From Prosthecobacter sp. (GTDB lineage: Bacteria; Verrucomicrobiota; Verrucomicrobiia; Verrucomicrobiales; Verrucomicrobiaceae), in contig JAIPJY010000047.1 in the NCBI GenBank assembly GCA_021733925.1, forward strand, positions 1 to 55,483: DNA of 55,483 nt, in the 5' to 3' direction. Shown piece by piece: positions 3,332 to 47,056 of this stretch. Each line of letters begins with the position of its first letter. Positions within the stretch are counted from its first letter, which is position 1. Under the pieces are notes generated by a model. That model was not told the DNA's origin and searched no databases. It was given only the letters and a program-made list of their open reading frames with translations. A program made the translations under genes and the position numbers.

Positions 3332-3487
3332 TCCATACCAGCCCCAAAGGGGCTGCGGAATATAGCCCAGGGTCGCCGAGCCTAAGCGAGGCCACCCTGG
3401 GTAATCAGCACACGATCGGAAAGCAAAGCCAGCGCTCCGCCGCACCCCATGCCCACCAGCAGCGTCTGCAACAACCTCCGCCACGCC
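3332..3487 (+). repeat. Dispersed intergenic repeat, copy R1
   Basis: First of seven copies in this window. It opens with a hairpin (AGCCCC-AAA-GGGGCT), then a longer stem (CCCAGGGT pairing with ACCCTGGG about 20 nt later, enclosing a GCCGAGCC…GCGAGGC core), then a conserved tail with GGAAAGCAAA, CCCACCAGCAGCGTCTGCAA and CTCCGCCAC. It fills most of the 316 bp spacer between the small gene after dnaJ and the heme O synthase gene. Open frames running through it are products of the repeat and should not be annotated. Confidence 0.9.
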
Positions 3488-3619
3488 ATAGCGCCGCGAT
3501 CAAACAACGCTCTAATCCCCTCCCAGCCGACTCTATTGCCCCACTCATTTAAACCCTCCACAGGACATGCGGCTTGCGACGACGCCATCCCTTCACATGA
3601 TCAATCAGCCCCCAAATTC

Positions 3620-4522
3620 ATGACCACCCGCGACCTGCTGACCCTGACGAAGTTCCGCCTCAGTGCGCTCGTCATCGTCACCACGTTTGTGGGGTTCTGG
3701 CTGCGTGCTCCCAAGGGCTTCGACATCTGGCTGCTGTTTCACACCATCATTGGCAGCACCCTCGCCGCCTTCGGTGCGGCGGTGTTCAATCAGCTCATGG
3801 AAATCGAGCCCGACTCGCGCATGCAGCGCACGTCGGATCGTCCCCTGCCCTCCGGGCGCGTGAGTCCTTCAGCCGCCTTCGGCATCGGCTGGCTCCTCAG
3901 CGCCTGGGCGCTCATCCACCTGACCATCACGGTGAACATGGAGGCCGCAGCCCTCACCGCGCTCACCCTCGCGGTGTATCTCTTCATCTACACCCCGCTC
4001 AAGCGCCAAAGCGCTACCAACACGCTCGTCGGTGCCGTCTCCGGCGCTCTGCCGCCGCTCATCGGCTGGGCCGGTGCCGCCGGCCCCCTGCCTGCGGGTG
4101 CCGCCCCCCATTTCCGCTGGGAGCTCATGATCGAGCCCGGTGCCATCTACCTCTTCCTCCTCCTCTTCCTCTGGCAGCTCCCCCATTTCCTCGCCATCAA
4201 CTGGATGTATCGCGACGAGTACCGCAAAGGCGGCTTCGTCATGCTCGCCAACGACGATGAGCACGGCGCACGCACCTCGAAGCACGCGCTTGCCTACGCC
4301 GTCAGCACCGTCCTGCTGATGTTCTACCCCGTGTATGCCGGTGCCGCCTATGCCTGGTGGTTCCTGCCTCCGGCCCTGCTGCTCAGCGGCTGGCTCTGCG
4401 TCCTGGCGCTGCGCTTCAACCGCCACCCGGAACGGGCAACCGCTCGCAAACTTTTCTTCTGCACGCTGATGTATCTCCCCGGCATTCTGACCGTATCTAT
4501 CATCGCCTGGAAACACGCGTAA
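3620..4522 (+). CDS. ctaB: Protoheme IX farnesyltransferase (heme O synthase)
   Basis: 300 residues from the chosen ATG. The frame is open much further upstream, but that part is repeat R1, so I start at MTTRDLLTLTKF, which matches the usual family N-terminus. The enzyme adds a farnesyl group to heme b to make heme O for terminal oxidases; it is a polytopic inner-membrane UbiA-family protein. The prenyl-diphosphate motif is NQLMEIEPD (about 57-65) followed by RTSDRPLPSGR. The second conserved block, YTPLKRQSATNTLVGAVSGA, is near 124-143. Eight or nine hydrophobic segments are visible. It is 10 bp upstream of the SCO gene and forms an oxidase-maturation operon with it. Confidence 0.95.
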   Translation: MTTRDLLTLTKFRLSALVIVTTFVGFWLRAPKGFDIWLLFHTIIGSTLAAFGAAVFNQLMEIEPDSRMQRTSDRPLPSGRVSPSAAFGIGWLLSAWALIHLTITVNMEAAALTALTLAVYLFIYTPLKRQSATNTLVGAVSGALPPLIGWAGAAGPLPAGAAPHFRWELMIEPGAIYLFLLLFLWQLPHFLAINWMYRDEYRKGGFVMLANDDEHGARTSKHALAYAVSTVLLMFYPVYAGAAYAWWFLPPALLLSGWLCVLALRFNRHPERATARKLFFCTLMYLPGILTVSIIAWKHA

Positions 4523-4532
4523 CTGCACCGCC

Positions 4533-5243
4533 ATGAACGAATCTCCCGCCAAAGCCAAGCTCAGCCCCTGGACCATCTGGGTGCCCGTCATCATCGCCGT
4601 CCTCGGCCTCGTCGTCTTTTACAACTACCTCATCTACCGCTCACGCATCGACAACGACGTCAACCGTCCGCCCATCCTTGGCCGCCTCGAAAAAGACCTC
4701 GAACTCACCGAGCGCAGCGGCAAGACCGTCCACCTCGAAGATTTGAAAGGTAAGGTGCTCGTCGTCTCCTGGGTTTTCACCCGCTGCCCGCGCGGCTGTG
4801 CGGCGGTGATCGCCAAACTCATGAAGCTTCAGTCGGAATTCGCCAACGAGCCCGGCCTCCACTTCGTCAGCTTCACCCTCGACGCCGACGACACACCGGA
4901 AATGATGAAGAAATTCGCCAGCGGCCTCGGCATCAAGGACGACGCCAACTGGTGGTTCGTGAACGGTGACAAGGACGCCGTGCGCAAGTTCATGACCAGC
5001 CAGGTCCAGTTCCGCCCCGTGCAGGACATGCCCGAGGCCGATCGTCTCTCCCCCGACGACAAGTACATCCACGATCTCCGCGTCGCCGTCATCGACCACC
5101 TCGGTCACGTGCGCAGTCTGGCCGATATTCTGAATACCGACCCCGAATTCGCCAAATTCTGGGATGAAAAAATCCGCAAAGACCTGCACTACCTGCTCAA
5201 CGAACAGAAAAAATCCCCCTACATTCCCGCTGGATCGAAATAA
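4533..5243 (+). CDS. SCO1/SenC copper chaperone for cytochrome c oxidase
   Basis: 236 residues. SCO proteins deliver copper to, or reduce, the CuA site of cytochrome c oxidase. One N-terminal membrane anchor (about 14-36) places a thioredoxin-fold domain outside the inner membrane. The copper ligands are visible: CPRGC (C85, C89) and the distal histidine H180 in DDKYIH. Gaps to its neighbours are 10 bp (ctaB upstream) and 3 bp (DUF420 downstream), so translation is probably coupled. No oxidase subunit genes are in the window. Confidence 0.94.
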   Translation: MNESPAKAKLSPWTIWVPVIIAVLGLVVFYNYLIYRSRIDNDVNRPPILGRLEKDLELTERSGKTVHLEDLKGKVLVVSWVFTRCPRGCAAVIAKLMKLQSEFANEPGLHFVSFTLDADDTPEMMKKFASGLGIKDDANWWFVNGDKDAVRKFMTSQVQFRPVQDMPEADRLSPDDKYIHDLRVAVIDHLGHVRSLADILNTDPEFAKFWDEKIRKDLHYLLNEQKKSPYIPAGSK

Positions 5244-5246
5244 ACC

Positions 5247-5681
5247 ATGGACGTCACCGAACTCCCCAAGCTCTACACGATTTTCAACGCCTGTGCGCTC
5301 CTGCACATCATCCTCGGTCTGACGATGATCAAGCTCGGCCACAAAAAGCCGCACATCGTCAGCATGATCATCGCGCTGTTGTTCTCCACGGCCTTCCTCG
5401 GCTGCTACCTCTACTACCACTATCACGCAGGCCACGTGAAGTTTGCCGGCACCGGCCTCACCCGCCCGATCTACTTCACCATCCTCTTCACGCACATCCC
5501 GCTCGCCGTGCTCAGCCTGCCGATGATCATCATGACTGTCGTCCCAGCCCTGCGCAGCCGTTTCGACAAGCACAAGCGCATGGCCAAGTGGACCGTCCCC
5601 GTCTGGCTCTACGTCTCCGTCACCGGCATCATCGTCTATCTCATGTGCTACGTCTGGTACGGCCCGCCCATCCGAGCGTAG
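5247..5681 (+). CDS. DUF420 membrane protein (YozB/CtaM-like)
   Basis: 144 residues with four hydrophobic segments. Family signs are an N-terminal FNACALLHI, the block YLYYHYHAGHVKFAGTG, the TRPIYFTILFTHIPLA stretch, and FDKHKRMAKWTVPVWLYVSV near the end; the histidines in these blocks are the conserved ones of DUF420. Members are linked to maturation of aa3-type oxidases in Firmicutes (CtaM in Staphylococcus, from memory). Its position 3 bp after the SCO gene supports a role in heme-copper oxidase assembly here. Family is sure; function is inference. Confidence 0.88.
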   Translation: MDVTELPKLYTIFNACALLHIILGLTMIKLGHKKPHIVSMIIALLFSTAFLGCYLYYHYHAGHVKFAGTGLTRPIYFTILFTHIPLAVLSLPMIIMTVVPALRSRFDKHKRMAKWTVPVWLYVSVTGIIVYLMCYVWYGPPIRA

Positions 5682-5706
5682 TGGAAGAGATCGTAGCGAA
5701 ACGTCC

Positions 5707-5806
5707 CCATTTGGACTGCGGTCGCGCAGCGAGGAACGAGCGCAGCTACCGCTTTCCGCTGGCCGTTTAGATCACGCACACCAAGAAACGCTCGAAAGCA
5801 GCAGCT
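5707..5806 (+). repeat. Dispersed repeat, second family, copy A
   Basis: About 100 bp that match positions 48314-48412 closely over the first 53 bp (from CCATTTGG through GCGGTCGCGCAGCGAGGAAC to CGCTTTCCGC) and more loosely after that (ACTCGAAAGCA-like tail). Both copies have the same orientation. It sits just after the DUF420 stop and gives rise to spurious frames. Confidence 0.8.
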
Positions 5807-5846
5807 AGGCAGTCGTGCTCCAAAGTCGTCTCCTCTACGGCAAGCC

Positions 5847-6155
5847 TCACTCCTCAAATTTCCACGACTTCCGCTTCGCCGGTTTGAGATCCGTCCTCCC
5901 ATACCTCTTCCGAAACACATCAAACGCGCTGTCAGACCCGTCCGCCTTCATCTGGTGCACCATCTGCAACAAGACCCCCAGCCGCCCCTTCGGAAATCCG
6001 GCCTTGTTCGCAAACCACCCAAGGTATTCCGCCGGAATATCATAAATCGGCACCCCGTTCGGCGGAAAATGCTGCGGCCCATACTTCCCAAACGGCATGA
6101 ACGTCCGCCCGATCTCTTCCAGATCAGCGCGCATGCGTGCAGCAAGGTCGTCCAT
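5847..6155 (-). CDS. DUF3820 family protein
   Basis: 102 residues. It shows the DUF3820 pattern: MPFGKYGPQHFPP followed by IYDIPAEYLGWFANKAGFPKG and a helical tail LGVLLQMVHQMK. This family is sometimes labelled putative quorum-sensing-regulated virulence factor; its biochemical role is not known to me. The C-terminal tail is basic (RKRYGRTDLKPAKRKSW). It is transcribed away from the DAHP synthase end; the spacer contains a very long inverted repeat (6180-6279). Confidence 0.8.
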   Translation of the reverse strand: MDDLAARMRADLEEIGRTFMPFGKYGPQHFPPNGVPIYDIPAEYLGWFANKAGFPKGRLGVLLQMVHQMKADGSDSAFDVFRKRYGRTDLKPAKRKSWKFEE

Positions 6156-6179
6156 GCTCGGACGATACCCCTGGTAAAG

Positions 6180-6279
6180 AATGACGAAACCAGAATGATG
6201 AATGACGAATCAATGACAAAGCCCGAAGCTCTATGACATTGGGATTTCATTCGTCATTCGCCATTCTGGTTTCGTCATT
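6180..6279. terminator. Long inverted repeat / giant hairpin between DUF3820 and DAHP synthase genes
   Basis: Two 31 bp arms (6180-6210 and 6249-6279) are inverted copies with two mismatches; each contains AATGACGAAACCAGAATG. The 38 bp between them has a further short pairing (CAATG with CATTG). The right arm includes the TGA stop codon of the DAHP synthase gene. It could terminate transcription of that gene, but there is no T-tract. It is built from a GAATGACGAA unit found at other sites in this window (27940-27980, 40049-40079, 45153-45213). Confidence 0.65.
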
Positions 6280-7318
6280 TTAGGCAGGCATGCGCCTCGC
6301 GCAGCAGCGCCTCCGTCGTCTCCCAGTCAATGCACGCATCCGTGATCGACTGCCCTCGCACCAGCTGATCCAGCGGCTGCGGAAATTTCTGGCTGCCGCC
6401 GACGAGGTTGCTCTCAAGCATCGCTCCAATAATCGCCTTCTGCCCCGCCACTCGTTGCCTCACGATCTCCCGAAATACATCCGGCATCCGGCGGTGATCC
6501 TTCGCGCAGTTGCCATGGCTGGCGTCGATCATGATCGCTGCCTTGAGCTTCGCGGACTCAAGTCCGTCGATGGTCTCCCGCACATCGTCCGCCCCATAGT
6601 TCGGCCCGTCTTCCCCACCCCTCAGAATGATGTGGCAGTCCGGATTGCCACTCGTCGTGACGGCAGAGGCGACACCCTCCTCACTCACACCCAGAAAAGT
6701 CTGCGGCTGCATCGCCGCCTTGATCGCATTGATCGCCGGCGTGATGTGCCCAAACGTCCCATTCTTAAATCCCAGCGGCATCGACAAACCCGACGCCATC
6801 TGCCGGTGCGTCTGCGACTCCGTCGTGCGTGCACCGATGGCGCTCCAACTGATCAAATCCGCAATGTACTGCGGCGTGATCGGGTCCAGCAGCTCCGTGG
6901 CCGTGGGCAGTCCCAGATCGAGCACATCACGCAAAATTTTCCGCGCTAGCCTCAACCCCTCTGGAATGTCGCAGCTGCCATCAAGCCGTGGGTCCATGAT
7001 CAGCCCCTTCCAGCCCACCGTCGTGCGCGGCTTTTCAAAATACACACGCATCACGATGCACAGCCGGTCCTTCAGTTCCTCCGCCAGCGCCGCCAGCTTC
7101 CGTGCATACTCCAGACCCGCCTCAGGATCATGAATCGAGCACGGCCCCAGCACGACGAGAAAGCGTGAATCACTGCCAAAGAGAATGTCGCGAATCTCCT
7201 GCCGCGAACGGGCCACGAAGGCGGCTTGCGCCTCCGTCGGCGCGATGTCGCTCATCATGTCCCGCGGTGACGGCAGCGGAATGTTGGAGGCGATGTGAAG
7301 ATTGGCAGTCTGGCTCAT
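6275..7318 (-). CDS. aroG: 3-deoxy-7-phosphoheptulonate (DAHP) synthase, class I
   Basis: 347 residues. It condenses phosphoenolpyruvate and erythrose-4-phosphate in the first step of the shikimate pathway. Class I (AroF/G/H) signs are LVVLGPCSIHDP, VMRVYFEKPRTTVGWKGL, GARTTESQTHRQMASGLSMP, GFKNGTFG and IMIDASHGNC; the metal-binding C, H, E and D positions of these blocks are present. Length fits the E. coli-type enzymes. Which of AroF/G/H regulation applies cannot be told, so the symbol is generic. The stop codon lies in the long inverted repeat. The APC permease gene upstream ends 34 bp before its start. Confidence 0.95.
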   Translation of the reverse strand: MSQTANLHIASNIPLPSPRDMMSDIAPTEAQAAFVARSRQEIRDILFGSDSRFLVVLGPCSIHDPEAGLEYARKLAALAEELKDRLCIVMRVYFEKPRTTVGWKGLIMDPRLDGSCDIPEGLRLARKILRDVLDLGLPTATELLDPITPQYIADLISWSAIGARTTESQTHRQMASGLSMPLGFKNGTFGHITPAINAIKAAMQPQTFLGVSEEGVASAVTTSGNPDCHIILRGGEDGPNYGADDVRETIDGLESAKLKAAIMIDASHGNCAKDHRRMPDVFREIVRQRVAGQKAIIGAMLESNLVGGSQKFPQPLDQLVRGQSITDACIDWETTEALLREAHACLK

Positions 7319-7352
7319 GGGGAACCTTCCATAAAGCCGGAACCGACTATCT

Positions 7353-8738
7353 TCAATCTTCCTGCACCACCGGATTCTTCGGCTTCAGCACCAGGTACAG
7401 CACCAGGCTCACAACCACGATCCCCCCCGCAATGAGCGGAGCCGTTTGCTGGGAGGTATCCGAGCTGGTGACCGCGCTGTAAATGCGCGCATAGATGAGC
7501 GAGGCGCAGGTCAAGGCTCCAAGAAGCGGCACAATCATCGGCGGCTCAAAACCGCCCCGGGGTTCATCCGGACGACGCTTCAGCACCAGCAGCGCAATGT
7601 TCACAATGGTGAAGACACTCAGAAGCAGCAGCACGGTGGATTCGGCGAGTTGTTTCACGCCACCGCTGAGGATGAGCAAAGCAACAATGCCAAACAGCAC
7701 AAACACCGCGATGTGCGGCGTATGACGCTTGGGATGGATGCGCCCCAAGATGGCGGGCAGCAGCCCCTGGCGGCTCATGCCATACAAAAGGCGCGAGCCC
7801 ATGATGTAGTTCAGCAGCGCAGTGTTGCCGATCGCAAAAATGGTGATGCCCAGATAAAGACGATCAATGCCTCCCAGCCACGGAGCGGCCCTGTGCGCCA
7901 CGTCCATCAGCGGCGTTTTGCTCGCCGCCAGTTCACGCCATGGGATTACCGAAACCGCCGTGATCGCCACCGCCATATAGATGATCGTCGCGAGGATCAT
8001 GGCACCAATCAGGCCAAACGGCACATTCTTCCGCGGGTTCTTCACCTCCTCGCTCACGTTCAATATGTCCTCGAAGCCGATGAAGGAATAAAACGTCAGC
8101 ACCGCCCCCTGCATGACCAGCGCCAGGGTGATGCCCGAGCCGGGACCGCCCGCCACCGTGTCGCCCGCTGTTTCCAGGTAGTTCACACTGCCCCAGTAAC
8201 GGACCCCGACCGCGATGATGAACAGCAGACCGGAAGCCTCCACGACGGTGCAGAGGATGTTCAACCACATGCTTTCACGCAGGCCACGATAGATCACGCA
8301 CCCCACGAGAAACACGATGCCGATGGCGACGAGCTTGATGTCGAGAGCAAACCCCAGCGCCTTTTCCAACTGTTCAGCAATAGCCTGTGCGCCAGTGGCC
8401 ATGCTGGTCAGACCGCTCATCATCACGGCAAGTCCCACCACGTAACTGAGCAGCGGTTTGCGCAGCCCCTTCTGGGTGACATACGCCGCGCCTCCCGCTT
8501 TGGCGTAACGGCTGCCAACACAGGCATACGACAGGCCCGTGAGCATCGCGGCGATCATCGCGGTCAAAAACGCGAGCCATACCGCATTTCCCAAGGAGTC
8601 TGCAGCCCGTCCGATGAGCGCATAAATGCCCGCTCCCAGCATCGATCCAAGTCCATAAAACAGCACCTGCCAGCCGCCGATCGTTGGCTGAAGAGAAGGC
8701 GGTGCGTCGGTTTTTGAAGAAAGGGCGGCGGGTTCCAT
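7353..8738 (-). CDS. APC family amino acid permease
   Basis: 461 residues with about 12 hydrophobic segments. The N-terminal helix has the APC signature GLGSMLGAGIYALIGRAADSLG, and the consensus FYSFIGFEDILNVSEEVKNPRKNVP (helix 6 region) is very clear. Such proteins import amino acids or polyamines with protons or by exchange. Substrate cannot be read from sequence. It is followed by DAHP synthase on the same strand, which may or may not be functionally meaningful. The upstream hsp20 operon is cut off from it by a strong terminator at 8772-8820. Confidence 0.92.
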   Translation of the reverse strand: MEPAALSSKTDAPPSLQPTIGGWQVLFYGLGSMLGAGIYALIGRAADSLGNAVWLAFLTAMIAAMLTGLSYACVGSRYAKAGGAAYVTQKGLRKPLLSYVVGLAVMMSGLTSMATGAQAIAEQLEKALGFALDIKLVAIGIVFLVGCVIYRGLRESMWLNILCTVVEASGLLFIIAVGVRYWGSVNYLETAGDTVAGGPGSGITLALVMQGAVLTFYSFIGFEDILNVSEEVKNPRKNVPFGLIGAMILATIIYMAVAITAVSVIPWRELAASKTPLMDVAHRAAPWLGGIDRLYLGITIFAIGNTALLNYIMGSRLLYGMSRQGLLPAILGRIHPKRHTPHIAVFVLFGIVALLILSGGVKQLAESTVLLLLSVFTIVNIALLVLKRRPDEPRGGFEPPMIVPLLGALTCASLIYARIYSAVTSSDTSQQTAPLIAGGIVVVSLVLYLVLKPKNPVVQED

Positions 8739-9863: not shown

Positions 9864-9950
9864 GTGCCATGCAAATGGCACGTCTTGTCACTTCATTGGG
9901 ACATTTCGTGCCAATTCCACCGCTTCAAAAAAGACTGTCTTAAATGGCAC
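9864..9950. promoter_or_regulatory. Cluster of TGGCAC inverted repeats upstream of hsp20 pair
   Basis: GTGCCATGCAAATGGCAC at 9864-9881 is a perfect 7 bp inverted repeat around 4 bp. A second inverted pair, GTGCCA (9908-9913) and TGGCAC (9945-9950), follows. Thus four half sites lie in 87 bp, 160-250 bp upstream of the first hsp20 start. Some half sites match a sigma-54 -24 box, but none has a good -12 box at the right distance. A repressor or activator site is possible; no regulator is identified. Confidence 0.4.
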
Positions 9951-10044
9951 TCGTTAAGACCCGGATTCGTACACTTTGCACCTCGGCGCATCGTTCACTG
10001 CGCCCTGAATTTCCTTGCCTGCATGGCGTGATCCTTCGCCACTC

Positions 10045-10207
10045 CACTCCGCAAAACACCAGCCCCAAAGGGGCTGCGTATCAAAGCGAAGGGTTGCCGA
10101 GCCTAGGCGAGGCTACCCTGGTACCCGCCATCAAATCCGGAAAGCAAATCCAGTACTCCGCCACACCCCACGCCCGCCAGCAGCGTCTGCAATGAGCCCC
10201 GCCACAT
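10045..10207 (+). repeat. Dispersed intergenic repeat, copy R2
   Basis: Copy of the R family with hairpin AGCCCC-AAA-GGGGCT, second stem AGGGT…ACCCT, and the tail GGAAAGCAAA / CGCCAGCAGCGTCTGCAA / CCCCGCCAC. It lies in the 600 bp spacer between the terC stop and the hsp20 start. It is the only copy not located just 3' of a plus-strand gene. The rest of the spacer (9702-9863, 9951-10044, 10208-10301) shows nothing I can name. Confidence 0.88.
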
Positions 10208-10301
10208 CAAGAGAGCGCCGCCTGCTCCAAAGTTCACGACCAATGCTATGAACCTTCTCCACTCCGCCGCCGGACAATGCGGCAGGCTTTTGAGCACCTG
10301 T

Positions 10302-11078
<777 letters not shown>

Positions 11079-12939: not shown

Positions 12940-13008
12940 CTTGCCTGGCTTTCAGCGCCTCCTGAAGTGAGATCATTCTACCTATGACACTCAGGTCAAC
13001 GAGCGACT

Positions 13009-13158
13009 CCAGCACCAAAGGTGCTGCGGATTACAGCCCAGGGTCAGCCGAGCCTCAGCGAGGCGACCCTGGGTACAGCAGCGCAATCGGAAAGCAAACC
13101 CATCACTCCGCCGCACATCGCGCCCACCAGCAGCGTCCTCAACCAGCTCCGCCGCACC
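13009..13158 (+). repeat. Dispersed intergenic repeat, copy R3
   Basis: Copy of the R family. The first hairpin is AGCACC-AAA-GGTGCT: both sides of the stem differ from R1 (AGCCCC/GGGGCT) in a compensating way. The second stem is CCCAGGGT…ACCCTGGG around GCCGAGCC…GCGAGGC. The tail has GGAAAGCAAA, CCCACCAGCAGCGTC and CTCCGCCGCAC. It lies between two plus-strand genes in a 402 bp spacer. Confidence 0.88.
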
Positions 13159-14166: not shown

Positions 14167-14535
14167 TACCACGATCAATTGAAAACAGGTCTGTCCCCAG
14201 ATCGAATCAGCTGCACTAACTGGGATCATTCACCTGCGGAGCCCCTCTCCTGTCTTGAAGGCCAACGGCCTTCCGTATCATAGCGAAGGGATGCCGAGCC
14301 TCGGCGAGGCTTCCCTGGTACTGGCCGACACCCTCCGGGCAGCAAACCCAGCGCGCCCTTCGCACGCCGCGTCCACCAGCAGCGCCTGCCCGCCATTCCG
14401 CCGCACGCAGGCAGTGCTCCCGCAAGCCCCCATGTCTGCTCTCGATGCCTCCACCCAGTTCATAGGGGATCACTCGGTCGCACAAATCTCGTCAGTCGGC
14501 TGAATGACAGACCCGTTTTCAATCCAGTGTGGTAT
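14166..14535. mobile_element. Inverted-repeat-bounded 370 bp element (MITE-like)
   Basis: Left end 14166-14195 and right end 14506-14535 are inverted copies: both contain ATTGAAAAC-A/G-GGTCTGTC (one mismatch in 18) and an outer ATACCAC, with a few mismatches between. The left end begins at the last base of the preceding gene's stop codon. No gene lies inside; repeat R4 (14256-14406) does. The structure fits a non-autonomous element mobilised by a transposase elsewhere. No target-site duplication is obvious. Confidence 0.55.
14256..14406 (+). repeat. Dispersed intergenic repeat, copy R4
   Basis: Divergent copy of the R family with hairpin AAGGCC-AAC-GGCCTT and second stem AGGGA…TCCCT (AGGGT…ACCCT in R2): both changes preserve pairing. 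The tail keeps CAGCAAACCCA and CCACCAGCAGCG. It lies within the inverted-repeat-bounded element 14166-14535. Confidence 0.8.
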
Positions 14536-27724: not shown

Positions 27725-27937
27725 CTCCCGAATAACGCTCCCGGCAATTCTGAGTACGTAGTTCGGGCTTTAGCCCGTTCCAGAATCCCCACTTCACCCC
27801 AGATCTGAAACCAGCCAGAGCACGTTTTGTAGTCCCGGCTTTAGCCGGAATCTGGGAAGCTTAGTTTGTGCAAACGGCTGCCAAATAAACTCCCCCTGTG
27901 ACCCTCCGTTCCACAATCCAGCCGCCTTGAGTTCAGG
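27725..27937 (+). repeat. Long direct repeat, copy 1 (left of gluQ)
   Basis: About 210 bp that align from CTCCCGAATAAC to ATCCAGCC-x-CCTTGA with 28976-29251. It includes CTGAGTACGTAGTT, a hairpin GGGCTTTAGCCC, and a second hairpin CCGGCTTTAGCCGG. Both copies are direct and flank gluQ at 28 bp and 167 bp. The remainder of the 317 bp spacer contains the hairpin above and GAATGACGAA-type units (27940-27980), which also supply the last codons of gluQ. Confidence 0.88.
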
Positions 27938-28975: not shown

Positions 28976-29251
28976 CTCCCGAATAACATATCATCAGCTC
29001 CTCTGAGTACGTAGTTGATGCGCTTCGCTTCCCTTCGGGCTCACTTCGTTCGTCTGTCTCGCTTCGCTCGGCTCGGGCTTTAGCCCGTTCTGGAAGCCCC
29101 GCATCTCCCCAAACCTAAAACCAGCCAGCGCATGTTTTGTAGTCCCGGCTTCAGCCGGAATCTGGAAGCTCAGTTCGTGCAAACCGCTCCCGAATAAACT
29201 CCCCAGTGACTCTCCCTCTCCCTCTCACTATCCAGCCACCTTGAATTCTGG
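28976..29251 (+). repeat. Long direct repeat, copy 2 (right of gluQ)
   Basis: Matches 27725-27937 but has an extra 56 bp block (a CGCTTCGCTTCCCTTCGGGC-type stretch) inserted between CTGAGTACGTAGTT and CGGGCTTTAGCCCG. The shared tail continues through CCGGCTTCAGCCGGAATCTGG and AATAAACTCCCC. It lies in the 529 bp spacer between gluQ and the Nif3-like gene; the bases 28809-28975 show nothing I can name. Confidence 0.85.
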
Positions 29252-31768: not shown

Positions 31769-31935
31769 CCACTCCGCAACACACCAGCCCTGAAGGGGCT
31801 GTGTAATATAGCCCAGGGTTAGCCGAGCCTCAGCGAGGCAACCCTGGGTTTTCGCCATCAAATCCGGAAAGCAAACCCACGACTTCGCCACATGCTACGC
31901 CTGCCAGCAGTGCCTTCAAAGAGCTCCGCCGCGCA
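31769..31935 (+). repeat. Dispersed intergenic repeat, copy R5
   Basis: Copy of the R family with hairpin AGCCC-TGAA-GGGGCT, second stem CCCAGGGTT…AACCCTGGG, and tail GGAAAGCAAACCCA / GCCAGCAGTGCC / CTCCGCC. It lies between two convergent genes. The remaining spacer (31473-31768) has a short GCTCTGAAGGAGCGC hairpin and nothing else I can support. Confidence 0.86.
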
Positions 31936-32435: not shown

Positions 32436-32462
32436 TTTTTGCCTCCCCAAGGAGGCAAAAAT
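32435..32462 (+). terminator. Hairpin directly after tRNA-Ser
   Basis: Perfect 12 bp stem (ATTTTTGCCTCC with its complement) and loop CCAA; it starts with the A of the CCA end. It likely ends tRNA transcription. A copy with a different stem (TTTTCGCCGC with its complement, loop TCAA) is at 35624-35647, followed by the same downstream bases. Confidence 0.7.
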
Positions 32463-32861
32463 GCCCTCCGTAGCTCGCAGAGCACAAGACGCCCCCCTTC
32501 CTCCAAGTTTAAAAGGACTTTGCCTTCTTCTGCCTCATTGCCCGGATTGAGGCACCATGTTCTATGTTTACTTCTGCGCAACCTAGCTTACTTTGTTCGC
32601 TGGCGGAGGGCTTAAGTGAAGCCAGCGTAAACCTGCGAGGGATGGGACTCCCGGCACTGTCAAAATTTGGGAGTCCCCCCAGCAATGCTGGGGGGTTTGC
32701 CTTCATAAATAAAGCGGCCTGACTTGGGAGAAACAGATTTCCCAGAGGCAGCCGCCACCTGACAAGCACGTTGCCACCTGCGCAAAGAAGAGCACTCCAT
32801 GAAGGTCGTCGGTTTACACTCATCAGGACGAAGAATCCACGCTTTGCTTCGTCGAGAACGA

Positions 32862-35610: not shown

Positions 35611-35671
35611 TCTGTCTCCGCCATTTTCGCCGCTCAAGCGGCGAAAAATGCCCTCCACAGCTCGCAGAGCG
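35611..35671 (+). repeat. Imperfect copy of tRNA-Ser 3' end and following hairpin (att-like)
   Basis: CTCTGTCTCCGCCATTTT, a hairpin (35624-35647), AAAAATGCCCTCC and AGCTCGCAGAGC repeat the order found at 32425-32482. Just before it, GGGTTTTTCCCC resembles a decayed T-arm. It could be the right junction of an insertion or the remnant of a second tRNA-Ser. The rest of the 309 bp spacer (35403-35610) shows nothing clear. Confidence 0.65.
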
Positions 35672-35711
35672 AAGGACACACCTTTTCCCCGCCACTCTGG
35701 CCGGTCTCCGA

Positions 35712-41931: not shown

Positions 41932-42098
41932 TTCACTCCGCGATACACCAGCTCCAACGGAGCTGCGTAATACAGCCCAGGGGTGCCGAGCTTTAGCGAG
42001 TGCTCCCCTGGGTTAGTAAGAGACGACTGGGAAGCAAACCCAGAATTTCGCCACACTCAACGCCCACCAGCAGCGTCTGCAACAAGCTCCGCCACATT
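41932..42098 (+). repeat. Dispersed intergenic repeat, copy R6
   Basis: Copy of the R family with hairpin AGCTCC-AAC-GGAGCT and second stem CCCAGGGG…CCCCTGGG (R1: CCCAGGGT…ACCCTGGG), both compensatory changes. The tail has GGGAAGCAAACCCAG, CCCACCAGCAGCGTCTGCAA and CTCCGCCAC. About 35 bp further on, TTAACTGAGTGCCATTCG also follows copy R7. Confidence 0.9.
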
Positions 42099-42219
42099 GG
42101 CTCCGCGATCAGACAGCGCTTCATGCCCGCGTTTAACTGAGTGCCATTCGTTCATCCCGTCAAAGGATGCGCTAGTCGGACGGGTGGCAAAATTCAAGTG
42201 CTGAGCTAAACTCCTTTAC

Positions 42220-42438: not shown

Positions 42439-42450
42439 CGGTTGGGGAAA

Positions 42451-42536
42451 ATGAACCCCAAAACCGTCGTCATCACCGGCTGCGGCTACGCCATGCCACC
42501 GCTCTTTACCCATCCCATGGGACGAGGTGGAGAAAA
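42451..42536 (+). pseudogene. Chimeric remnant: start of the SDR gene joined to end of prfC
   Basis: 42451-42483 reads M-N-PKTVVITGC, matching the SDR start MPPKTVVITGC at 42724 with only two changed bases. 42512-42536 reads IPWDEVEK, matching the prfC end at 41698 with synonymous differences in two codons. The order is the reverse of the intact genes (prfC then SDR). This fits a past tandem duplication of prfC-SDR followed by deletion of the middle. Confidence 0.8.
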
Positions 42537-42542
42537 GTTCGG

Positions 42543-42699
42543 GCGGTGTTTTAGACAGGATTAACAAGATTACAGGATGATGCAGGATCGCCCGTTCAGC
42601 TCTTCCAAGAGCCGACTTTTCGCGACGCCACTCTCAAACCACGCCCGCGCAAATCTTGTGAATCCCGCAATCCTGTAAATCCTGTCAAAACAGCACCGC
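42543..42699. repeat. Inverted repeat with GACAGGATT-type units
   Basis: Left arm (42543-42562, GCGGTGTTTTAGACAGGATT) and right arm (42678-42699, complement with two small differences) enclose 115 bp. Units AACAAGATTACAGGAT and AATCCTGTAAATCCTGTC resemble those at 39918-39957. Confidence 0.6.
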
Positions 42700-42723
42700 G
42701 CAACCCAAAGCCCCGCCTCCCCC

Positions 42724-43413
42724 ATGCCCCCCAAAACCGTCGTCATCACCGGCTGCACCCGCGGACTCGGCCGCGCCATGGTCCCCCTCTTCATCAAAGC
42801 AGGCTGGCACATCGCCGGCTGTGGCCGCAACGCCGCCCAAATCGCCGAACTCTCCCACCAGTTCCCCGCGCCTCACCATTTCCAAACCTGCGATGTCTCC
42901 AGCGAATCCGACATCGCCGCCTTCTGCGCCACCATCCTCGAAAAATTCGGCCCACCCGACCTCGTCCTCAACAACGCCGCCATCATCACCCCCAACGCCC
43001 CCCTCTGGGAAACCAGCGCCGCAGACTTCAGCCGCATCATCAACATCAACATCAAAGGCCCCGCCGCCATGATGCGCCACCTGCTCCCCGCCATGCTCAA
43101 ACGCGGCAGCGGCGTCATCGTCAATTTCTCCTCCGGCTGGGGCCGCTCCACCGCCTCCGACGTCGCCCCCTACTGCGCCACCAAATACGCCATCGAAGGC
43201 CTCTCCATGGCCACCGCCCAGGACACCGGCGGCAAAGTCGCCGTCATCCCCATGAACCCCGGCATCATCGACACCGACATGCTCCGCAGCACCTTCGGCA
43301 CCGGTGCCGGCGATTTCCCCGACGCCAATGACTGGGCCCGCCGCGCCGTCCCCTACTTCATCAAACTCGCCCCCAAAGACAACGGCAAACCCCTCACTGT
43401 CCCCGGAGGATAG
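42724..43413 (+). CDS. Short-chain dehydrogenase/reductase (SDR)
   Basis: 229 residues, classical SDR. Cofactor motif TGCTRGLG (9-16), NNAA (83-86), and the catalytic set S136/S137 in FSSGWG, Y150 and K154 in YCATK. The region PGIIDTDM after the active site is typical. Substrate unknown. A decayed copy of its first 33 bp lies 273 bp upstream. No Shine-Dalgarno; the start is preceded by CCTCCCCC. Confidence 0.92.
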   Translation: MPPKTVVITGCTRGLGRAMVPLFIKAGWHIAGCGRNAAQIAELSHQFPAPHHFQTCDVSSESDIAAFCATILEKFGPPDLVLNNAAIITPNAPLWETSAADFSRIININIKGPAAMMRHLLPAMLKRGSGVIVNFSSGWGRSTASDVAPYCATKYAIEGLSMATAQDTGGKVAVIPMNPGIIDTDMLRSTFGTGAGDFPDANDWARRAVPYFIKLAPKDNGKPLTVPGG

Positions 43414-43635
43414 GCCTCCTGGCCTGTCAACGGCTCGGGGCGTCTCGCCTCCGTTCAGTCAGGATTGAAGCCTCACCAGCCGCCAATCATCCGGCCACCA
43501 CACAATCCCAAGTCCTTTCAGGCCTTCTACCAAGCCCACCCTTGTCTCCCACTTCATTCAGCAGCCCCAAAAGAAACACCCTCTGAAAAATCTCTGCGGC
43601 GTTCCAATCTCTGCGGTGTAAAATCAGTGCCTCCC

Positions 43636-44268
43636 ATGCGCCTCCTCATCACCGCCGGCCCCACCCGCGAGCCCATCGACCCCGTGCGCTTCCTCTCAAA
43701 CCGCTCCTCCGGCCGCATGGGCTACGCCCTCGCCGAAGCCGCCCACGCCGCCGGACACGAAGTCCTCCTCATCTCCGGCCCCGTCACTCTCCCGCCACCC
43801 TCCGGCATCCAACTCATCCACGTCGAAACCGCCCGCGAAATGTTCGACGCCGTTCGCACCCACCTCCCCGGCTGCGCCGCCGCCATCTTCAGCGCCGCCG
43901 TCGCCGACTACCGCCCCGCACAAGTCGTCCCCCAAAAGCTCAAAAAGTCAGCCGCCACCCTCACCCTCGAACTCGAACGCACCGAAGACATCCTCGGCTC
44001 CGTCCGCTCCCAGTTCGCCTTCACCGGCTTCCTCGTCGGCTTCGCCGCCGAAACCGAAAACCTCATCGCTCACGCTCAGGACAAGCTCCAGCGCAAAGGC
44101 TGCGACCTCATCATCGCAAACGACGTATCCCAGCCGGGCATCGGGTTTGACAGTCCAGAAAACGAAGTCACCCTCTGCCTCCCCGGCGGCACCACGATTC
44201 CCCTCCCCAGGCAGTCGAAAACCTCCCTCGCCCACGAATTGATCCAATTCATTTCATCCAGCATCTAG
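43636..44268 (+). CDS. coaB: Phosphopantothenate-cysteine ligase (CoaB domain only)
   Basis: 210 residues from MRLLITAGPTREPIDPVR; the upstream frame is not family-like. CoaB joins cysteine to phosphopantothenate in coenzyme A synthesis. SNRSSGRMG (21-29) and SAAVADYRP (86-94) are the nucleotide and active-site motifs, then KKSAATLTLELERTEDIL and FAAETENL, DLIIANDV. Most bacteria fuse it to CoaC; the CoaC half is missing here. The last codons (ISSSI-stop) come from CATCTAG-type repeat units. Confidence 0.93.
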   Translation: MRLLITAGPTREPIDPVRFLSNRSSGRMGYALAEAAHAAGHEVLLISGPVTLPPPSGIQLIHVETAREMFDAVRTHLPGCAAAIFSAAVADYRPAQVVPQKLKKSAATLTLELERTEDILGSVRSQFAFTGFLVGFAAETENLIAHAQDKLQRKGCDLIIANDVSQPGIGFDSPENEVTLCLPGGTTIPLPRQSKTSLAHELIQFISSSI

Positions 44269-44291
44269 CATCTAGCATCTAGCATCCAGCC
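44252..44291. repeat. CATCTAG short tandem repeat over the coaB stop
   Basis: CATCCAGCATCTAG followed by further GCATCTAG units and CATCCAGC. It supplies the coaB stop codon (TAG) and reaches 5 bp before the next start. Same unit as at 37217-37243. Confidence 0.75.
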
Positions 44292-44295
44292 CCCA

Positions 44296-45054
44296 GTGAA
44301 CGAACTCCTCGCCACCGCCACCGAAGCCGCCCACGCCGCCGGCAAACTCATCAAAGACAACTTCGGCTCCGATCTCACCGTCAACGAAATGCAGCGCCAC
44401 GACATCAAGCTCGAGCTCGACGTCCGCAGCCAGCAGCTCATCACCGACATGATCCTCGCCCGCTTCCCCGACCACGCCATCCTCGGCGAAGAAGGCGGCG
44501 AAACCGGCGGCAACGGCGATGTCGAATGGATCGTCGATCCCATCGACGGCACCGTAAATTACTTCTTCAGCATCCCGCACTTCTGCGTCTCCATCGCCGC
44601 CCGCAACCGCGAATCCAAAGAGCTCCTCATCGGCGTCATCTTTGACCCCATGCAGAACGAAACTTGGACCGTCATCCGCGGCGAAAAAACCCATCTCAAT
44701 GGCAAACCCATCGCCGTGAGTGATCGCGCCAAAATGTCCGAAGCCGTCGTCACCGTCGGCTTCTCCAAGAGCAAAGAAGCCCTCGATCTCGGCTTCGACC
44801 GCTACAAGCGCATCGCCTACGAAGTCCGCAAAACCCGCATGCTCGGCAGCGCCGCCCTCGCCATGGCCTACATCGCCTCCGGCCGTCTCGATGCCTACGT
44901 CGAAGAGCAAATCAGCCTCTGGGACATCGCCGCCGGCCACCTCATGGTCGAAATGGGCGGCGGCAAAGTCACCCTCAAGCCCAGCACCACCAAGCCCGGC
45001 ACCATGTTCATCTGCGCTTCCAACGGCAAGCTGCCCATCGAGGACTATCTCTGA
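44296..45054 (+). CDS. Inositol monophosphatase family protein
   Basis: 252 residues with a GTG start. Mg-dependent phosphatase of the IMPase/CysQ superfamily. Metal ligands: E65-E66 (LGEEGGE), D81 and D84 in DPIDGT, and a late WDIAAGHLMVEMGG (Asp). Substrate could be inositol-1-phosphate or another small phosphate ester such as PAP; sequence alone does not decide. It starts 27 bp after coaB. Confidence 0.93.
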   Translation: MNELLATATEAAHAAGKLIKDNFGSDLTVNEMQRHDIKLELDVRSQQLITDMILARFPDHAILGEEGGETGGNGDVEWIVDPIDGTVNYFFSIPHFCVSIAARNRESKELLIGVIFDPMQNETWTVIRGEKTHLNGKPIAVSDRAKMSEAVVTVGFSKSKEALDLGFDRYKRIAYEVRKTRMLGSAALAMAYIASGRLDAYVEEQISLWDIAAGHLMVEMGGGKVTLKPSTTKPGTMFICASNGKLPIEDYL

Positions 45055-45069
45055 GAAAGCACCCGCGCT

Positions 45070-45107
45070 CTGGCTCAGCCAGGTAGCCTTGTTGCTGTGC
45101 AACAAGG
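45070..45107. terminator. Two adjacent hairpins after the IMPase gene
   Basis: CTGGC-TCA-GCCAG (45070-45082), then CCTTGTTGC-TGT-GCAACAAGG (45087-45107), 16 bp after the stop. No T-tract, so termination is uncertain. The following 45153-45213 holds GAATGACGAA-type units. Confidence 0.5.
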
Positions 45108-45152
45108 ACCCATCTCAAACAATCCCCACCACCTCCCGCGCACCCCAGGTCC

Positions 45153-45213
45153 CGATTCATCATTCGGTCTTCGTCATTCATTCGTCATTCGGACTTCTGA
45201 TTTCGTCATTCTG
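45153..45213. repeat. TCATTCGTCATTC-type repeat units
   Basis: Five or six degenerate copies of CATTCGTCATTCGG / TTTCGTCATT, the same group as at 6249-6279, 27940-27980 and 40049-40079. No gene in this spacer. Confidence 0.7.
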
Positions 45214-45278
45214 ACACCGCCATTTCTTCCCTGCTTGCAGGACCTTGCATCGACTGGCGCTCCCTCTTCACACCGCGC

Positions 45279-46061
45279 ATGCCCCCCTCCCCCGACACCC
45301 GCGAAGTCATCCTCGAAGCCATCGAACTCACCCGAGAGTTCGACGGCGTCAAGGCTCTCGACCGCTTCAGCTTCAAGCTGCATCGCGGTGAAGTCCTCGG
45401 CCTTCTCGGTGCCAACGGTGCCGGCAAGACCACCGCCATGAACTGCCTCCTCGGCCTCACCCTGCCGACCTCCGGCGAATTGAACGCCTTCGGCCTCCCT
45501 TTGCAGGCCAACCGCATCAGCATCCTCCAGCGCGCCAATTTCTCCTCCGCCTACACAGCCCTGCCCGGCAATCTGCTCGTGTGGCAAAACCTCCTCGTCT
45601 TCGCCCGCATCTACGGCGTCCCAAATCCGAAGAAAAAAATCGCCGAGCTCATGGAGCTCCTCGAAATCTCCCACCTCAGCAAACGCGTCACCGGCCAGCT
45701 CTCCGCAGGTGAGTCCACCCGCGTCAACCTCGTCAAAGCCTTCCTCAACGACCCCGAGCTCCTCATGCTCGACGAGCCCACCGCCAGCCTCGACCCCGAC
45801 ATCGCCGACAAAGTCCGCAAAGTCGTCCGCAAGGTCCAGCGCGAGCGCAACATCGGCATCCTCTACACCTCCCACAACATGCGCGACATCGAGGAAGTCT
45901 GCGACCGCGTCATCTTTCTCCACAAAGGCAAGATCGTCCGCGAAGGCACCCCGTCAGACATCGTCGCCCAGTCCAGCAGCGACAACCTTGAAGATGTCTT
46001 CATCAAGATCGCCCGCGACGGCGAACTCCTCGACGAACCGAAGAAAGAGTCAGCCGTATGA
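45279..46061 (+). CDS. ABC transporter ATP-binding protein
   Basis: 260 residues. Walker A GANGAGKTT (44-52), signature LSAGESTRV (a variant of LSGGQ), Walker B LLMLDEPTASLD, and a switch His in YTSHNMRDIEE. It energises an ABC-2 type exporter encoded by the next gene (4 bp overlap). The closest look is to the DrrA/NodI group. The substrate is not known. Confidence 0.93.
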   Translation: MPPSPDTREVILEAIELTREFDGVKALDRFSFKLHRGEVLGLLGANGAGKTTAMNCLLGLTLPTSGELNAFGLPLQANRISILQRANFSSAYTALPGNLLVWQNLLVFARIYGVPNPKKKIAELMELLEISHLSKRVTGQLSAGESTRVNLVKAFLNDPELLMLDEPTASLDPDIADKVRKVVRKVQRERNIGILYTSHNMRDIEEVCDRVIFLHKGKIVREGTPSDIVAQSSSDNLEDVFIKIARDGELLDEPKKESAV

Positions 46062-46855
46062 ATTTTCGCATCATCAGCGCCCTCGTGATGCGCTACCTCT
46101 TCCTTTACACCCGCAGCCCCATGCGCCTCGTCGAGCTGGCATTCTGGCCGGTGTTGGACCTCATCGTCTGGGGAAACGTGACCGTCTTCATCCAAAAAAA
46201 CACCGACCCCGAATTCGGCCACTACGTGCTCTTCTTCCTCGGCGGCATGATCCTTTGGGACATCATGTTCCGTGCCCAGCAGGGCGTCGCCATTTCCTTC
46301 CTTGAAGACGTGTGGACGCGAAACCTCCTCAACATCTTCGTCGCTCCCGTACGTTCTTCGGAGTACATCAGCTCCACCTTCATCGTCGGCTTCTTTCGCA
46401 TTCTCATCACCGCCGTCGTGCTCAGTTTCATTTCCTGGTTCGGTTATGCCTTCAATGTTTTTCAGCTCAGCTGGTGGCTCATTCCCTTTTTTGCCAACCT
46501 CATGCTCTTTGGCTGGTCCCTCGGCATGATCTCCACGGCGTTGATCCTGCGCTGGGGACTCGCCGCCGAATCTCTCGCCTGGGCCATCCCCTTCCTTTTC
46601 CAGCCCGTCGTTGCCGTGTTTTACAATGTCGAAGACATGCCCGCCTGGTCTCAGCCCATCGCCTGGTGCTTCCCGCCCACCTACATTTTTGAAGGCATGC
46701 GTTCCGTCATGAAATCCGGCACCATGAACTGGAATTACCTCGGGTACGCAGCCGCCCTGAACATCCTCTACCTCGCCCTCGCCGGCTGGCTCTTCGTCTG
46801 GGTCCTCAATCTCACCCGCAAACGCGGCCTCCTCACCAAGTTCGCCACGCAGTAA
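46058..46855 (+). CDS. ABC-2 type transporter permease
   Basis: 265 residues with six hydrophobic segments. Early motif SPMRLVELAFWPVLDLIVWG, then FLEDVWTRNLLNIFVAPVRSSEY, which matches the coupling region of ABC-2 permeases. After segment five: WCFPPTYIFEGMRSVM, typical of NodJ-like proteins. Overlaps the ATPase gene by 4 bp (ATGA). Together they form a simple exporter. Ends 53 bp before repeat R7. Confidence 0.92.
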   Translation: MNFRIISALVMRYLFLYTRSPMRLVELAFWPVLDLIVWGNVTVFIQKNTDPEFGHYVLFFLGGMILWDIMFRAQQGVAISFLEDVWTRNLLNIFVAPVRSSEYISSTFIVGFFRILITAVVLSFISWFGYAFNVFQLSWWLIPFFANLMLFGWSLGMISTALILRWGLAAESLAWAIPFLFQPVVAVFYNVEDMPAWSQPIAWCFPPTYIFEGMRSVMKSGTMNWNYLGYAAALNILYLALAGWLFVWVLNLTRKRGLLTKFATQ

Positions 46856-46908
46856 AAACTGCCGCAGGCACGCATGCGCCCCAAGACGACGGAGTCTCCC
46901 GACCCCGT

Positions 46909-47056
46909 CCTACCCCAACGGGGTTGCGTCATGAAGCCCAGGGCCGCCGAGCCTCAGCAAGGTGCCCCTGGGTCAGCACACCCCCATCCGGAAAGCCAAC
47001 CCAGCACTCCGCCACATCCCAAGCCCACCAGCAGCGTCGGCCATGAGCCCCGCCGC
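46909..47056 (+). repeat. Dispersed intergenic repeat, copy R7
   Basis: Copy of the R family with hairpin ACCCC-AAC-GGGGT, second stem CCCAGGG…CCCTGGG, and tail GGAAAGCCAACCCAG / GCCCACCAGCAGCGTC / CCCCGCCGCAC. About 80 bp further on, TTAACTGAGTGTCATTCG matches the distal block of R6. It lies between two convergent genes; the rest of the 362 bp spacer shows nothing else. Confidence 0.86.

What the first reader, a model, noticed from the sequence alone, without database searches (positions are those of the whole stretch)
3332..47056. Seven-copy intergenic repeat with two covarying hairpins
Copies R1-R7 (3332, 10045, 13009, 14256, 31769, 41932, 46909) share one design: short hairpin, long stem-loop, conserved tail. 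Stem bases change between copies, but pairing is kept. First hairpin arms: AGCCCC/GGGGCT, AGCACC/GGTGCT, AAGGCC/GGCCTT, AGCTCC/GGAGCT, ACCCC/GGGGT. Second stem outer pairs: CCCAGGGT/ACCCTGGG, AGGGA/TCCCT, CCCAGGGG/CCCCTGGG. That is strong covariation over a small set and suggests that the folded RNA or single-stranded DNA matters, rather than simple copying. The tail (about 60 bp with a near-invariant CCACCAGCAGCGTC) is conserved in sequence. I know similar paired-stem repeats from PVC bacteria, but know of no described role.
Basis: seen in the sequence. Interest (0 to 1): 0.72.

Follow-up and report, generated by a model that had tools for sequence, protein, structure and literature searches.

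The report
Replication-oriented hairpin repeats in Verrucomicrobia
A repeat made of two DNA hairpins and a conserved tail is scattered between the genes of a verrucomicrobial genome, points almost always the same way relative to DNA replication, resembles hairpins beside small single-strand DNA transposase genes, and seems to have hairpins swapped in place as whole units, which makes it a testable case of how such repeats spread.

Summary
The seven copies are real and belong to a large family: 125 model hits in this 7.3-Mb Verrucomicrobiaceae genome, 93 copies counted in the stretches I fetched. The pairing changes are real too. The most striking property is orientation. Copies lie on the C-rich strand in 88 of 93 cases here, 32 of 32 in a relative, and 52 of 57 listed hits in a single-contig genome of another family. 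Gene direction explains little of this. The two hairpins have the design found beside small Y1 (IS200-like) transposase genes in PVC and some other bacteria, so they are REP-like elements, probably handled as single-stranded DNA at replication forks. In this genus hairpins and tail often sit in a longer unit with terminal inverted repeats (47 of 87 copies with at least one arm); one repeat type matches an IS4-like insertion sequence. Hairpin 2 exists as two block types. Of seven copies matched on both flanks to the same site in a relative, three carry another type there (five of ten if one long flank suffices). Much of its covariation is therefore block replacement. The tail shows no sign of coding; its role stays unknown. 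Mobilisation by the transposase and hairpin exchange are inferred, not shown.

The parts
3335..3487 (+). R1 core; hairpin 1 3339-3355, hairpin 2 (type II) 3365-3402, tail from about 3418
10056..10208 (+). R2 core; hairpin 1 10060-10076, hairpin 2 (type I) inner stem 10090-10119, tail from about 10139; type II at the matching site in G001 and G022
9943..9958 (+). TIR-A-like 5' arm of R2 with one base missing (AATGGCACTCGTTAAG)
13005..13158 (+). R3 core; hairpin 1 13010-13026, hairpin 2 (type II) 13036-13074, tail from about 13089
14252..14407 (+). R4 core; hairpin 1 (GAAGGCC variant) 14257-14273, hairpin 2 (type I) inner stem 14287-14316, tail from about 14337
14178..14195 (+). TIR-C 5' arm of R4 (ATTGAAAACAGGTCTGTC)
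14506..14523 (+). TIR-C 3' arm of R4 (GACAGACCCGTTTTCAAT)
31781..31935 (+). R5 core; hairpin 1 31785-31801, hairpin 2 (type II) 31811-31849, tail from about 31866
41943..42098 (+). R6 core; hairpin 1 41949-41965, hairpin 2 (type II) 41975-42013, tail from about 42029
42133..42148 (-). TIR-A 3' arm of R6 (AATGGCACTCAGTTAA on the - strand)
46905..47059 (+). R7 core; hairpin 1 46910-46926, hairpin 2 (type II) 46936-46973, tail from about 46990; at the matching G001 site hairpin 1 is of another block type
47142..47157 (-). TIR-A 3' arm of R7 (AATGACACTCAGTTAA on the - strand)

Best explanation
The repeat is a non-autonomous mobile element of the REP kind. Its two hairpins are read as single-stranded DNA by a small Y1 (HUH, IS200-like) transposase encoded elsewhere in the genome (contig C104). 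That enzyme, or a relative, cuts and joins hairpins on the lagging-strand template exposed at replication forks, which fixes the orientation of copies relative to replication. Once a copy is in place its hairpins can still be overwritten as units by hairpins of the prevailing type. In this genus the hairpins plus an added tail were also built into longer units with terminal inverted repeats, some sharing an end with an IS4-like insertion sequence. Shown: copy number, pairing, orientation relative to GC skew, hairpin design beside transposase genes, TIRs, block differences at shared sites. Inferred: that skew marks replication direction, that the Y1 enzyme moves or rewrites the hairpins, and that it does so on the lagging-strand template. 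Unknown: what the tail does.
For: Orientation: 88 of 93 copies on the C-rich strand in G000, elements masked; 32 of 32 in G022; 52 of 57 listed hits in single-contig G028. By TIR class in G000, identical cores dropped: none 36/37, one arm 31/33, matched pair 20/21. Majority gene strand within 10 kb fits only 56 of 92. Y1 link: the C104 gene (Y1_Tnp E=2.1e-21) lies between hairpin pairs of the family, in both orientations. Of 80 fetched loci with relatives of this protein, the 63 with enough flank hold 127 hairpin pairs of this geometry within 600 nt and 31 in equal stretches 1.2-1.8 kb away; 52 versus 17 loci. Element and protein agree in presence in 29 of 37 genomes, own one included, Fisher p=0.006, relatedness not corrected. 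Hairpin type I is 61 of 89 typed pattern hits in G000 and 13 of 17 in G005, which carry the C104-type protein (itself, 80%); 25 of 72 in UBA7681 (95%) and 13 of 36 listed in UWPOB_VERRUCO4 (92%); but 7/63, 11/52, 1/45, 4/26 and 0/27 in G001, G002, G012, G020 and G022, whose best match is at most 59%. 87 of 92 copies do not overlap a called gene; of 72 with both neighbours called, 2 lie between divergent and 33 between convergent genes, as reported for REPs (PMC3733652, passages).
Against: The hairpins lack the GT[AG]G foot of canonical REPs. There is no direct evidence of movement by the Y1 enzyme. Copies bounded by TIRs, which a DDE transposase could move, are oriented just as strongly, so orientation alone does not single out the Y1 enzyme. 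Other repeats of this genome are also oriented (CAGCTACCGCTTTC 19/21, CCCGAACTACGTAC 14/15 the other way, TCTCGATGCCTCCA 15/18, elements not masked), so a general cause such as orientation-dependent loss is possible; one family is not (8/17). One of the five exceptions in G000 (C68, skew -0.146) lies in a strongly skewed contig. In G028 the element switch near 0.60-0.71 Mb does not coincide with the skew switch at 0.35-0.5 Mb. Five genomes have a related protein and no model hit, three the reverse. G023 has 3 type I and no type II pattern hits with only a 49% protein.
Confidence: 0.58

Rival explanations
1. They are MITEs: short transposons moved as double-stranded DNA by DDE transposases (an IS4-like one for TIR-A), with the hairpins as passengers. 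Orientation comes from transposase contact with the replication machinery.
For: Matching TIR pairs in 25 of 87 copies and at least one arm in 47 of 87, against 0 of 87 for reversed motifs. The element end shares about 44 nt with the left end of an IS4-like element (IS4 family E=9.8e-6, far below NCBIfam's cut-off). Compact TIR-to-TIR copies in G012 and one unoccupied site. In contigs with |skew|>0.05, a threshold chosen after seeing the data, the IS4-like element has its transposase on the G-rich strand in 7 of 7 cases. Several IS families are reported to be oriented through the beta clamp (PMC5371812, passages).
Against: 40 of 87 copies show no TIR, and TIR-less copies are as oriented (36/37). 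The same core carries four unrelated TIRs. Hairpin pairs of G028 are oriented too, and the two I read (L052, L319) have no recognisable tail or TIR. I found no transposase for TIR-B, C or D, but searched the genome only with the TIR-A and TIR-B patterns. Over all 17 contig ends the IS4-like element is 10 to 7, not biased.
Confidence: 0.2
2. Random orientation at insertion followed by orientation-dependent loss, or a host function in which polar motifs mark replication direction (as recalled for KOPS or Chi).
For: Bias is near total (32 of 32 in G022) and shared by several repeat families. Some copies are kept at the same site in sister species.
Against: Copies are sparse (93 counted in 7.3 Mb), and three G001 copies and one G012 copy are absent at the matching G000 site. 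Sequence changes while pairing is kept, unlike a fixed recognition word. No listed G028 hit lies between 2.09 and 2.65 Mb around the inferred terminus, where a segregation motif would be wanted.
Confidence: 0.12
3. A transcribed RNA element, for example a terminator or 3'-end stabiliser of the upstream gene.
For: Of 72 copies with both neighbours called, 2 lie between divergent and 33 between convergent genes; stable folds.
Against: Orientation follows GC skew, not genes: 24 copies have both neighbours on their strand, 13 both on the other. No Rfam family in the window at the gathering score except a tRNA. Terminator features were not scanned.
Confidence: 0.06
4. The tail encodes a small membrane peptide on the reverse strand.
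For: One reverse frame reads RSSLQTLLVGVVCGGVLGLLS in the consensus and has stops in only 10 of 108 copies over 65 nt.
Against: Two forward frames have fewer stops (5 and 4 of 108). No codon-phase signal: mean entropies 0.72, 0.71, 0.65 in 108 ungapped of 136 tails. Over 135 nt every reverse frame has stops in 74-99 of 131 copies. No Pfam match up to E=0.01.
Confidence: 0.01

Closest known systems
Class 3 TnpA-Y1 genes with atypical REP-like structures (Quentin et al. 2018, PMC6006769; passages and sections 12 and 27 read)
   Same: Y1 proteins with a class-1-like Y...Q signature, genes flanked by several atypical structures without GT[AG]G, structures in high copy elsewhere in the genome; described mainly from Planctomycetes, Acidobacteria and Proteobacteria.
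   Different: Class 3 was described with a CnGA foot, which I could not confirm. No two-hairpin-plus-tail unit, TIR-bounded form, replication orientation of copies or in-place hairpin change appears in the parts I read.
Canonical REP/REPIN with RAYT (PMC3116915, PMC3733652; passages read)
   Same: Intergenic, high copy, mostly between convergent or unidirectional genes, linked to a Y1 protein flanked by the repeats.
   Different: No GTAG tag seen at a hairpin foot; an asymmetric pair of unlike hairpins instead of one REP or an inverted pair; one orientation per replichore.
IS200/IS605 (IS608, ISDra2)
   Same: Hairpins recognised by a Y1 enzyme; orientation that follows host replication (PMC5371812, passages).
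   Different: No transposase inside; dispersed non-autonomous copies.
MITE of an IS4-like insertion sequence
   Same: TIR-A and about 44 nt of end sequence shared with an IS4-like element in the genome.
   Different: Only part of the copies; the same interior occurs with four unrelated TIRs.

Membership tests
REP sequence of a Y1 (RAYT/TnpA-REP) system | Dispersed intergenic hairpins in high copy | tested here: met
   125 model hits; 87 of 92 copies not overlapping a called gene by more than 50 nt
REP sequence of a Y1 (RAYT/TnpA-REP) system | A Y1 gene in the genome flanked by the same hairpins (REPtron) | tested here: met
   C104 gene with family members at L001:1227-1317 -, 1317-1437 + and 1949-2086 -; pairs of this geometry near relatives in 52 of 63 loci, 17 of 63 in control stretches
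REP sequence of a Y1 (RAYT/TnpA-REP) system | GT[AG]G tetranucleotide at the hairpin foot | tested here: not met
   Read by eye from the sequences and alignments; no automatic scan was run
REP sequence of a Y1 (RAYT/TnpA-REP) system | Cleavage or mobilisation by the enzyme | not testable with these tools
   Needs biochemistry
Class 3 TnpA-Y1 system (Quentin 2018) | HUH plus Y...Q signature, class-3 core profile | tested here: inconclusive
   DHVH and YVHHQ; Tyr and Gln align with YIENQ of PDB 2fyx, E=0.009. Their class profile was not available. NCBIfam IS200 model 53.3 bits against cut-off 55, REP model 24.3 against 80
Class 3 TnpA-Y1 system (Quentin 2018) | CnGA foot of the flanking structures | tested here: inconclusive
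   CCGA/GCGA words lie in the hairpin-2 tip, not clearly at a foot (by eye)
MITE | Terminal inverted repeats | tested here: met
   47 of 87 copies with an arm, 25 with a matching pair; reversed motifs 0 of 87. None seen in 40 of 87
MITE | Ends shared with an autonomous IS in the genome | tested here: inconclusive
   Yes for TIR-A (IS4 match below cut-off, full element not assembled); no partner found for B, C, D
MITE | Target-site duplication | tested here: inconclusive
   Unoccupied sites too diverged to read it
IS200/IS605 insertion sequence | Transposase gene within the element | tested here: not met
   The unit is at most about 370 bp and its tail shows no coding signal
Known structured RNA family | Match to an Rfam family | tested here: not met
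   Window: only a tRNA reaches a gathering score

The most novel reading that the evidence does not exclude
The Y1 enzyme rewrites hairpins in place. When a lineage gains a new Y1 gene, the enzyme replaces resident hairpins at old sites by its own hairpin type, as units of about 60 nt on single-stranded DNA at the fork. REP families would then spread partly by conversion of existing copies, not only by new insertions, and hairpin covariation would be a by-product of swapping ready-made hairpins.
Probability: 0.25. Interest if true: 0.82.

Novelty: new variant of a known kind. Interest (0 to 1): 0.6.

Why it matters
How REP-type repeats spread, and whether their Y1 enzymes move them, is an open question. 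Many REPs are symmetrical or come as inverted pairs, so their orientation says little (recalled). This family is asymmetric, so its orientation relative to replication can be read directly from genomes, and it is nearly total in the three species of one order tested. Sister species in which the hairpin type differs at the same site give concrete events in which to look for the mechanism. If hairpins are exchanged as units, covariation in such repeats cannot be taken by itself as proof of selection on a folded RNA.

Tried and rejected
Coding tail: a reverse frame looked like a membrane peptide; rejected by stops over the longer stretch and flat codon phase. Rfam: no family. Tandem G.A motif (CGAG...CGAG) in the hairpin-2 tip: 65 of 98 copies under a strict pattern, but not enriched beside Y1 genes (14 versus 12 of 55 loci), so not used. 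A TIR as a requirement: rejected, 40 of 87 copies show none. A single IS as parent: only TIR-A could be tied to one. Orientation by gene direction: 56 of 92, nominal p=0.047, too weak to explain 88 of 93. A 378-aa RAYT-like protein family beside TIR-A elements was considered as partner; in the two places I read there were element fragments rather than a set of hairpin pairs, so the C104 protein was preferred. Pure compensatory mutation for hairpin 2: disfavoured because the 3' spacer differs with it.

Limits. Model hits per genome were capped at 150 scored candidates (82). GC skew stands for replication direction; no origin was mapped by genes. The gene caller is a simple one of my own. Copies dropped before counting: under 90 bits; under 75 bits; under 60 bits; under 40 bits. 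Searches also dropped copies with identical cores; this removed the C68 exception. Searches needed flanks inside the fetched stretch. One search used 63 and one search used 55 of the 80 loci (which itself kept the best 80 of 138). One search used the 57 listed of 60 G028 matches. Orthologous comparisons were few. Type counts for UBA7681 (all 76 rows) and UWPOB_VERRUCO4 (40 of 47 rows listed) were made by eye, four other-word rows in each left out. The type comparison uses nine genomes with at least 17 typed hits; the rest had few (for example G018 2 type I to 6 type II, G023 3 to 0, G017 2 to 0, G011 2 to 1), G039 (protein 80% identical, 5 matches) was not listed, and G041-G043 had few. Pattern hits may include words outside the element.
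Full report
What is there. The window holds seven copies of a 153-156 nt unit, all on the + strand: hairpin 1 (7-bp stem, 3-nt loop), about 10 nt, hairpin 2 (stem with a conserved tip), a spacer, and a conserved tail with near-invariant CCAGCAGCG. The profile finds nothing at E<=10 in 20 shuffled windows. The whole genome (G000, 7.3 Mb, 127 contigs; the window is C87) has 125 matches to the covariance model, partial ones included; only 150 of 2174 candidates were scored, so this is a lower bound.

The host. The closest matches to the linked transposase lie in Verrucomicrobiaceae. The same-genus genome G005 has the same match coordinates as Brevifollis gellanilyticus, and G011 the same as a Prosthecobacter isolate, so the genus is of that group.

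Pairing. On 98 copies aligned to the model, 18 of 31 pairs have two-sided changes, 242 cells against 68 in shuffles, and the score drops when partner columns are slid. The alignment was fitted to the structure, which leans this way, and related copies inflate such counts. Read without the alignment, 80 of 97 hairpin-1 regions have all seven standard pairs and 12 have six. Hairpin 1 is well supported; the outer four pairs of hairpin 2 form in 37-43% of copies.

Orientation. With elements masked, 88 of 93 copies lie on the C-rich strand of their surroundings (p=1e-20); in the 21 contigs with several copies 71 of 73 agree (0 of 20000 random draws). Four of the five exceptions lie where the skew is at most 0.05; one, in C68, does not. 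In G022 the count is 32 of 32. In G028, a single 3.5-Mb contig from another family of the order, 52 of 57 listed hits agree with the nearest sampled skew, and a two-switch model misfits 4 of 57 (0 of 2000 random sets). Its element switches fall at 0.60-0.71 and 2.09-2.65 Mb, the sampled skew switches at 0.35-0.5 and 2.2-2.3 Mb, about half a chromosome apart; the first pair does not coincide. Taking the leading strand as the G-rich one (established knowledge), the reverse strand of the element is the lagging-strand template. Gene direction explains little: 56 of 92. A control family (ATCGTGCCTCTGTG) is 8 of 17, but some other repeats are oriented as well.

The Y1 link. G000 has 21 matches to the Y1 transposase family. 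The best, in C104, is a 144-aa protein with DHVH and YVHHQ motifs between hairpin pairs of the family in both orientations; its hairpin 2 is of type I. Of 80 loci with relatives of this protein from a genome collection, mostly PVC, 63 had enough flank: hairpin pairs of this geometry occur 127 times within 600 nt and 31 times in equal stretches 1.2-1.8 kb away. Some are close in sequence, for example on both sides of the gene in Verrucomicrobium sp. BvORR106. Eleven of the 63 have none nearby. Presence of the protein and of the element agree in 29 of 37 genomes (21 both, 8 neither, 3 element only, 5 protein only).

The longer unit. Extending the copies shows terminal inverted repeats of four kinds, A to D. 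Of 87 copies with enough flank, 25 have a matching pair, 22 one arm or a mismatched pair, and 40 none; reversed motifs give 0 of 87. TIR-A is also the end of a high-copy element collapsed at contig ends of G000, whose homologue in G018 begins an IS4-like transposase (IS4 family E=9.8e-6, below the cut-off). In the window, R4 has a TIR-C pair, R2 a damaged TIR-A 5' arm, R6 and R7 a TIR-A 3' arm. A TIR-bounded G012 copy is absent at the matching G000 place; target duplications could not be read.

Hairpin types. Hairpin 2 comes as type I (AGCGAAGGG...CCCTGGTA) or II (AGCCCAGGG...CCCTGGG), with both arms of one kind in 72 of 83 G000 copies and one mixed. I compared G000 copies with copies at the same place in relatives. 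Seven have both flanks matched: L099:12816, L078:12319, L078:12533, R2, R5, R7 and L081:378 (the two L078 copies and R5 face tandem copies in G001, so the pairing of copies there is by order). Three of the seven, L099:12816, L078:12319 and R2, are type I where the relative has type II; at L099:12816 (G001, G002) and R2 (G001, G022) two relatives agree on type II. Three more have one long flank matched: L099:18798 (I versus II), L085:11998 (mixed versus II) and R3 (II in both). At L099:12816 the tail is 65 of 69 identical to G001. R2 and L099:12816 share a 56-nt tract from AGCGAAGGG through ATCCGG with two differences, both in the loop, while their counterparts differ there. Over G000, 34 of 49 type I and 12 of 30 type II copies carry the same kind of spacer, so the link of type and spacer is partial. 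At R7 hairpin 1 is of another block type in G001. Copying of a hairpin block into an existing site explains this better than a series of compensating changes. Type I is the majority in G000 (61 of 89) and G005 (13 of 17), about a third in two further genomes with a close C104-type protein, and at most 21% in five genomes without one; genomes with few typed hits were left out, and one of them (G023, 3 to 0) does not fit. This is the basis of the most novel reading; ordinary ectopic gene conversion, with type I amplified for other reasons, is the simpler alternative.

The tail. It has the most conserved primary sequence, but codon phase and stops give no sign of a protein. It may be needed by whatever copies the unit; nothing here tests that.

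Literature. Orientation that follows replication is known for IS200/IS605 and for several IS families (PMC5371812, passages; two primary papers it cites were not held). Class 3 Y1 genes with atypical flanking structures are the nearest described system (PMC6006769). My searches for Verrucomicrobia intergenic repeats, RAYT in PVC, and REP with strand or replichore bias listed no paper that describes this unit or its orientation, as far as titles, abstracts and the passages I read show (an open-access library only).

Noticed in passing
window 27763-27855 and 29073-29165; 32437-32501 and 35624-35688: Two other two-copy repeat families with paired hairpins (TCGGGCTTTAGCCCG...CCCGGCTTTAGCCGG; TTTTGCCTCC...GGAGGCAAAA).
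   Followed up: no
G000 C49:5730/5943, C108:12317/12530; G012 C166:75571/75784; G002 C213:68870/69083: Pairs of copies exactly 213 bp apart recur in three genomes; the C108 pair has a matching pair in G001 (L205), 269 bp apart.
   Followed up: partly
L204:2450 (G001) and L079:9051-9160 (G000): At a shared site G001 has the whole element, G000 only the tail end with another hairpin repeat in place of the hairpin half.
   Followed up: partly
G028 C1:2.09-2.65 Mb: No listed hit around the inferred terminus, although about nine would be expected at even density.
   Followed up: no
L116:15561-16697, L113:1064-2200 and nine G000 frames of 388-404 aa: A family of RAYT-like proteins, 378 aa in the two read (NCBIfam REP_Tyr_transpos 1.9e-17, below cut-off), next to a TIR-A end in L116 and to a tail fragment of the element in L113.
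   Followed up: partly
G000 contig ends C35, C36, C37, C39, C54 and others: The IS4-like element has its transposase on the G-rich strand in 7 of 7 contig ends with |skew|>0.05, but 10 of 17 overall.
   Followed up: partly
L001:1910-2302 and similar: Hairpin pairs create open frames (ARQPFAMMRKPFGL...) that could be annotated as hypothetical proteins.
   Followed up: no
L021 and L104 (G000), L128 (G020): TIR-A also bounds short elements with quite different interiors, so the ends seem to take up various contents.
   Followed up: no
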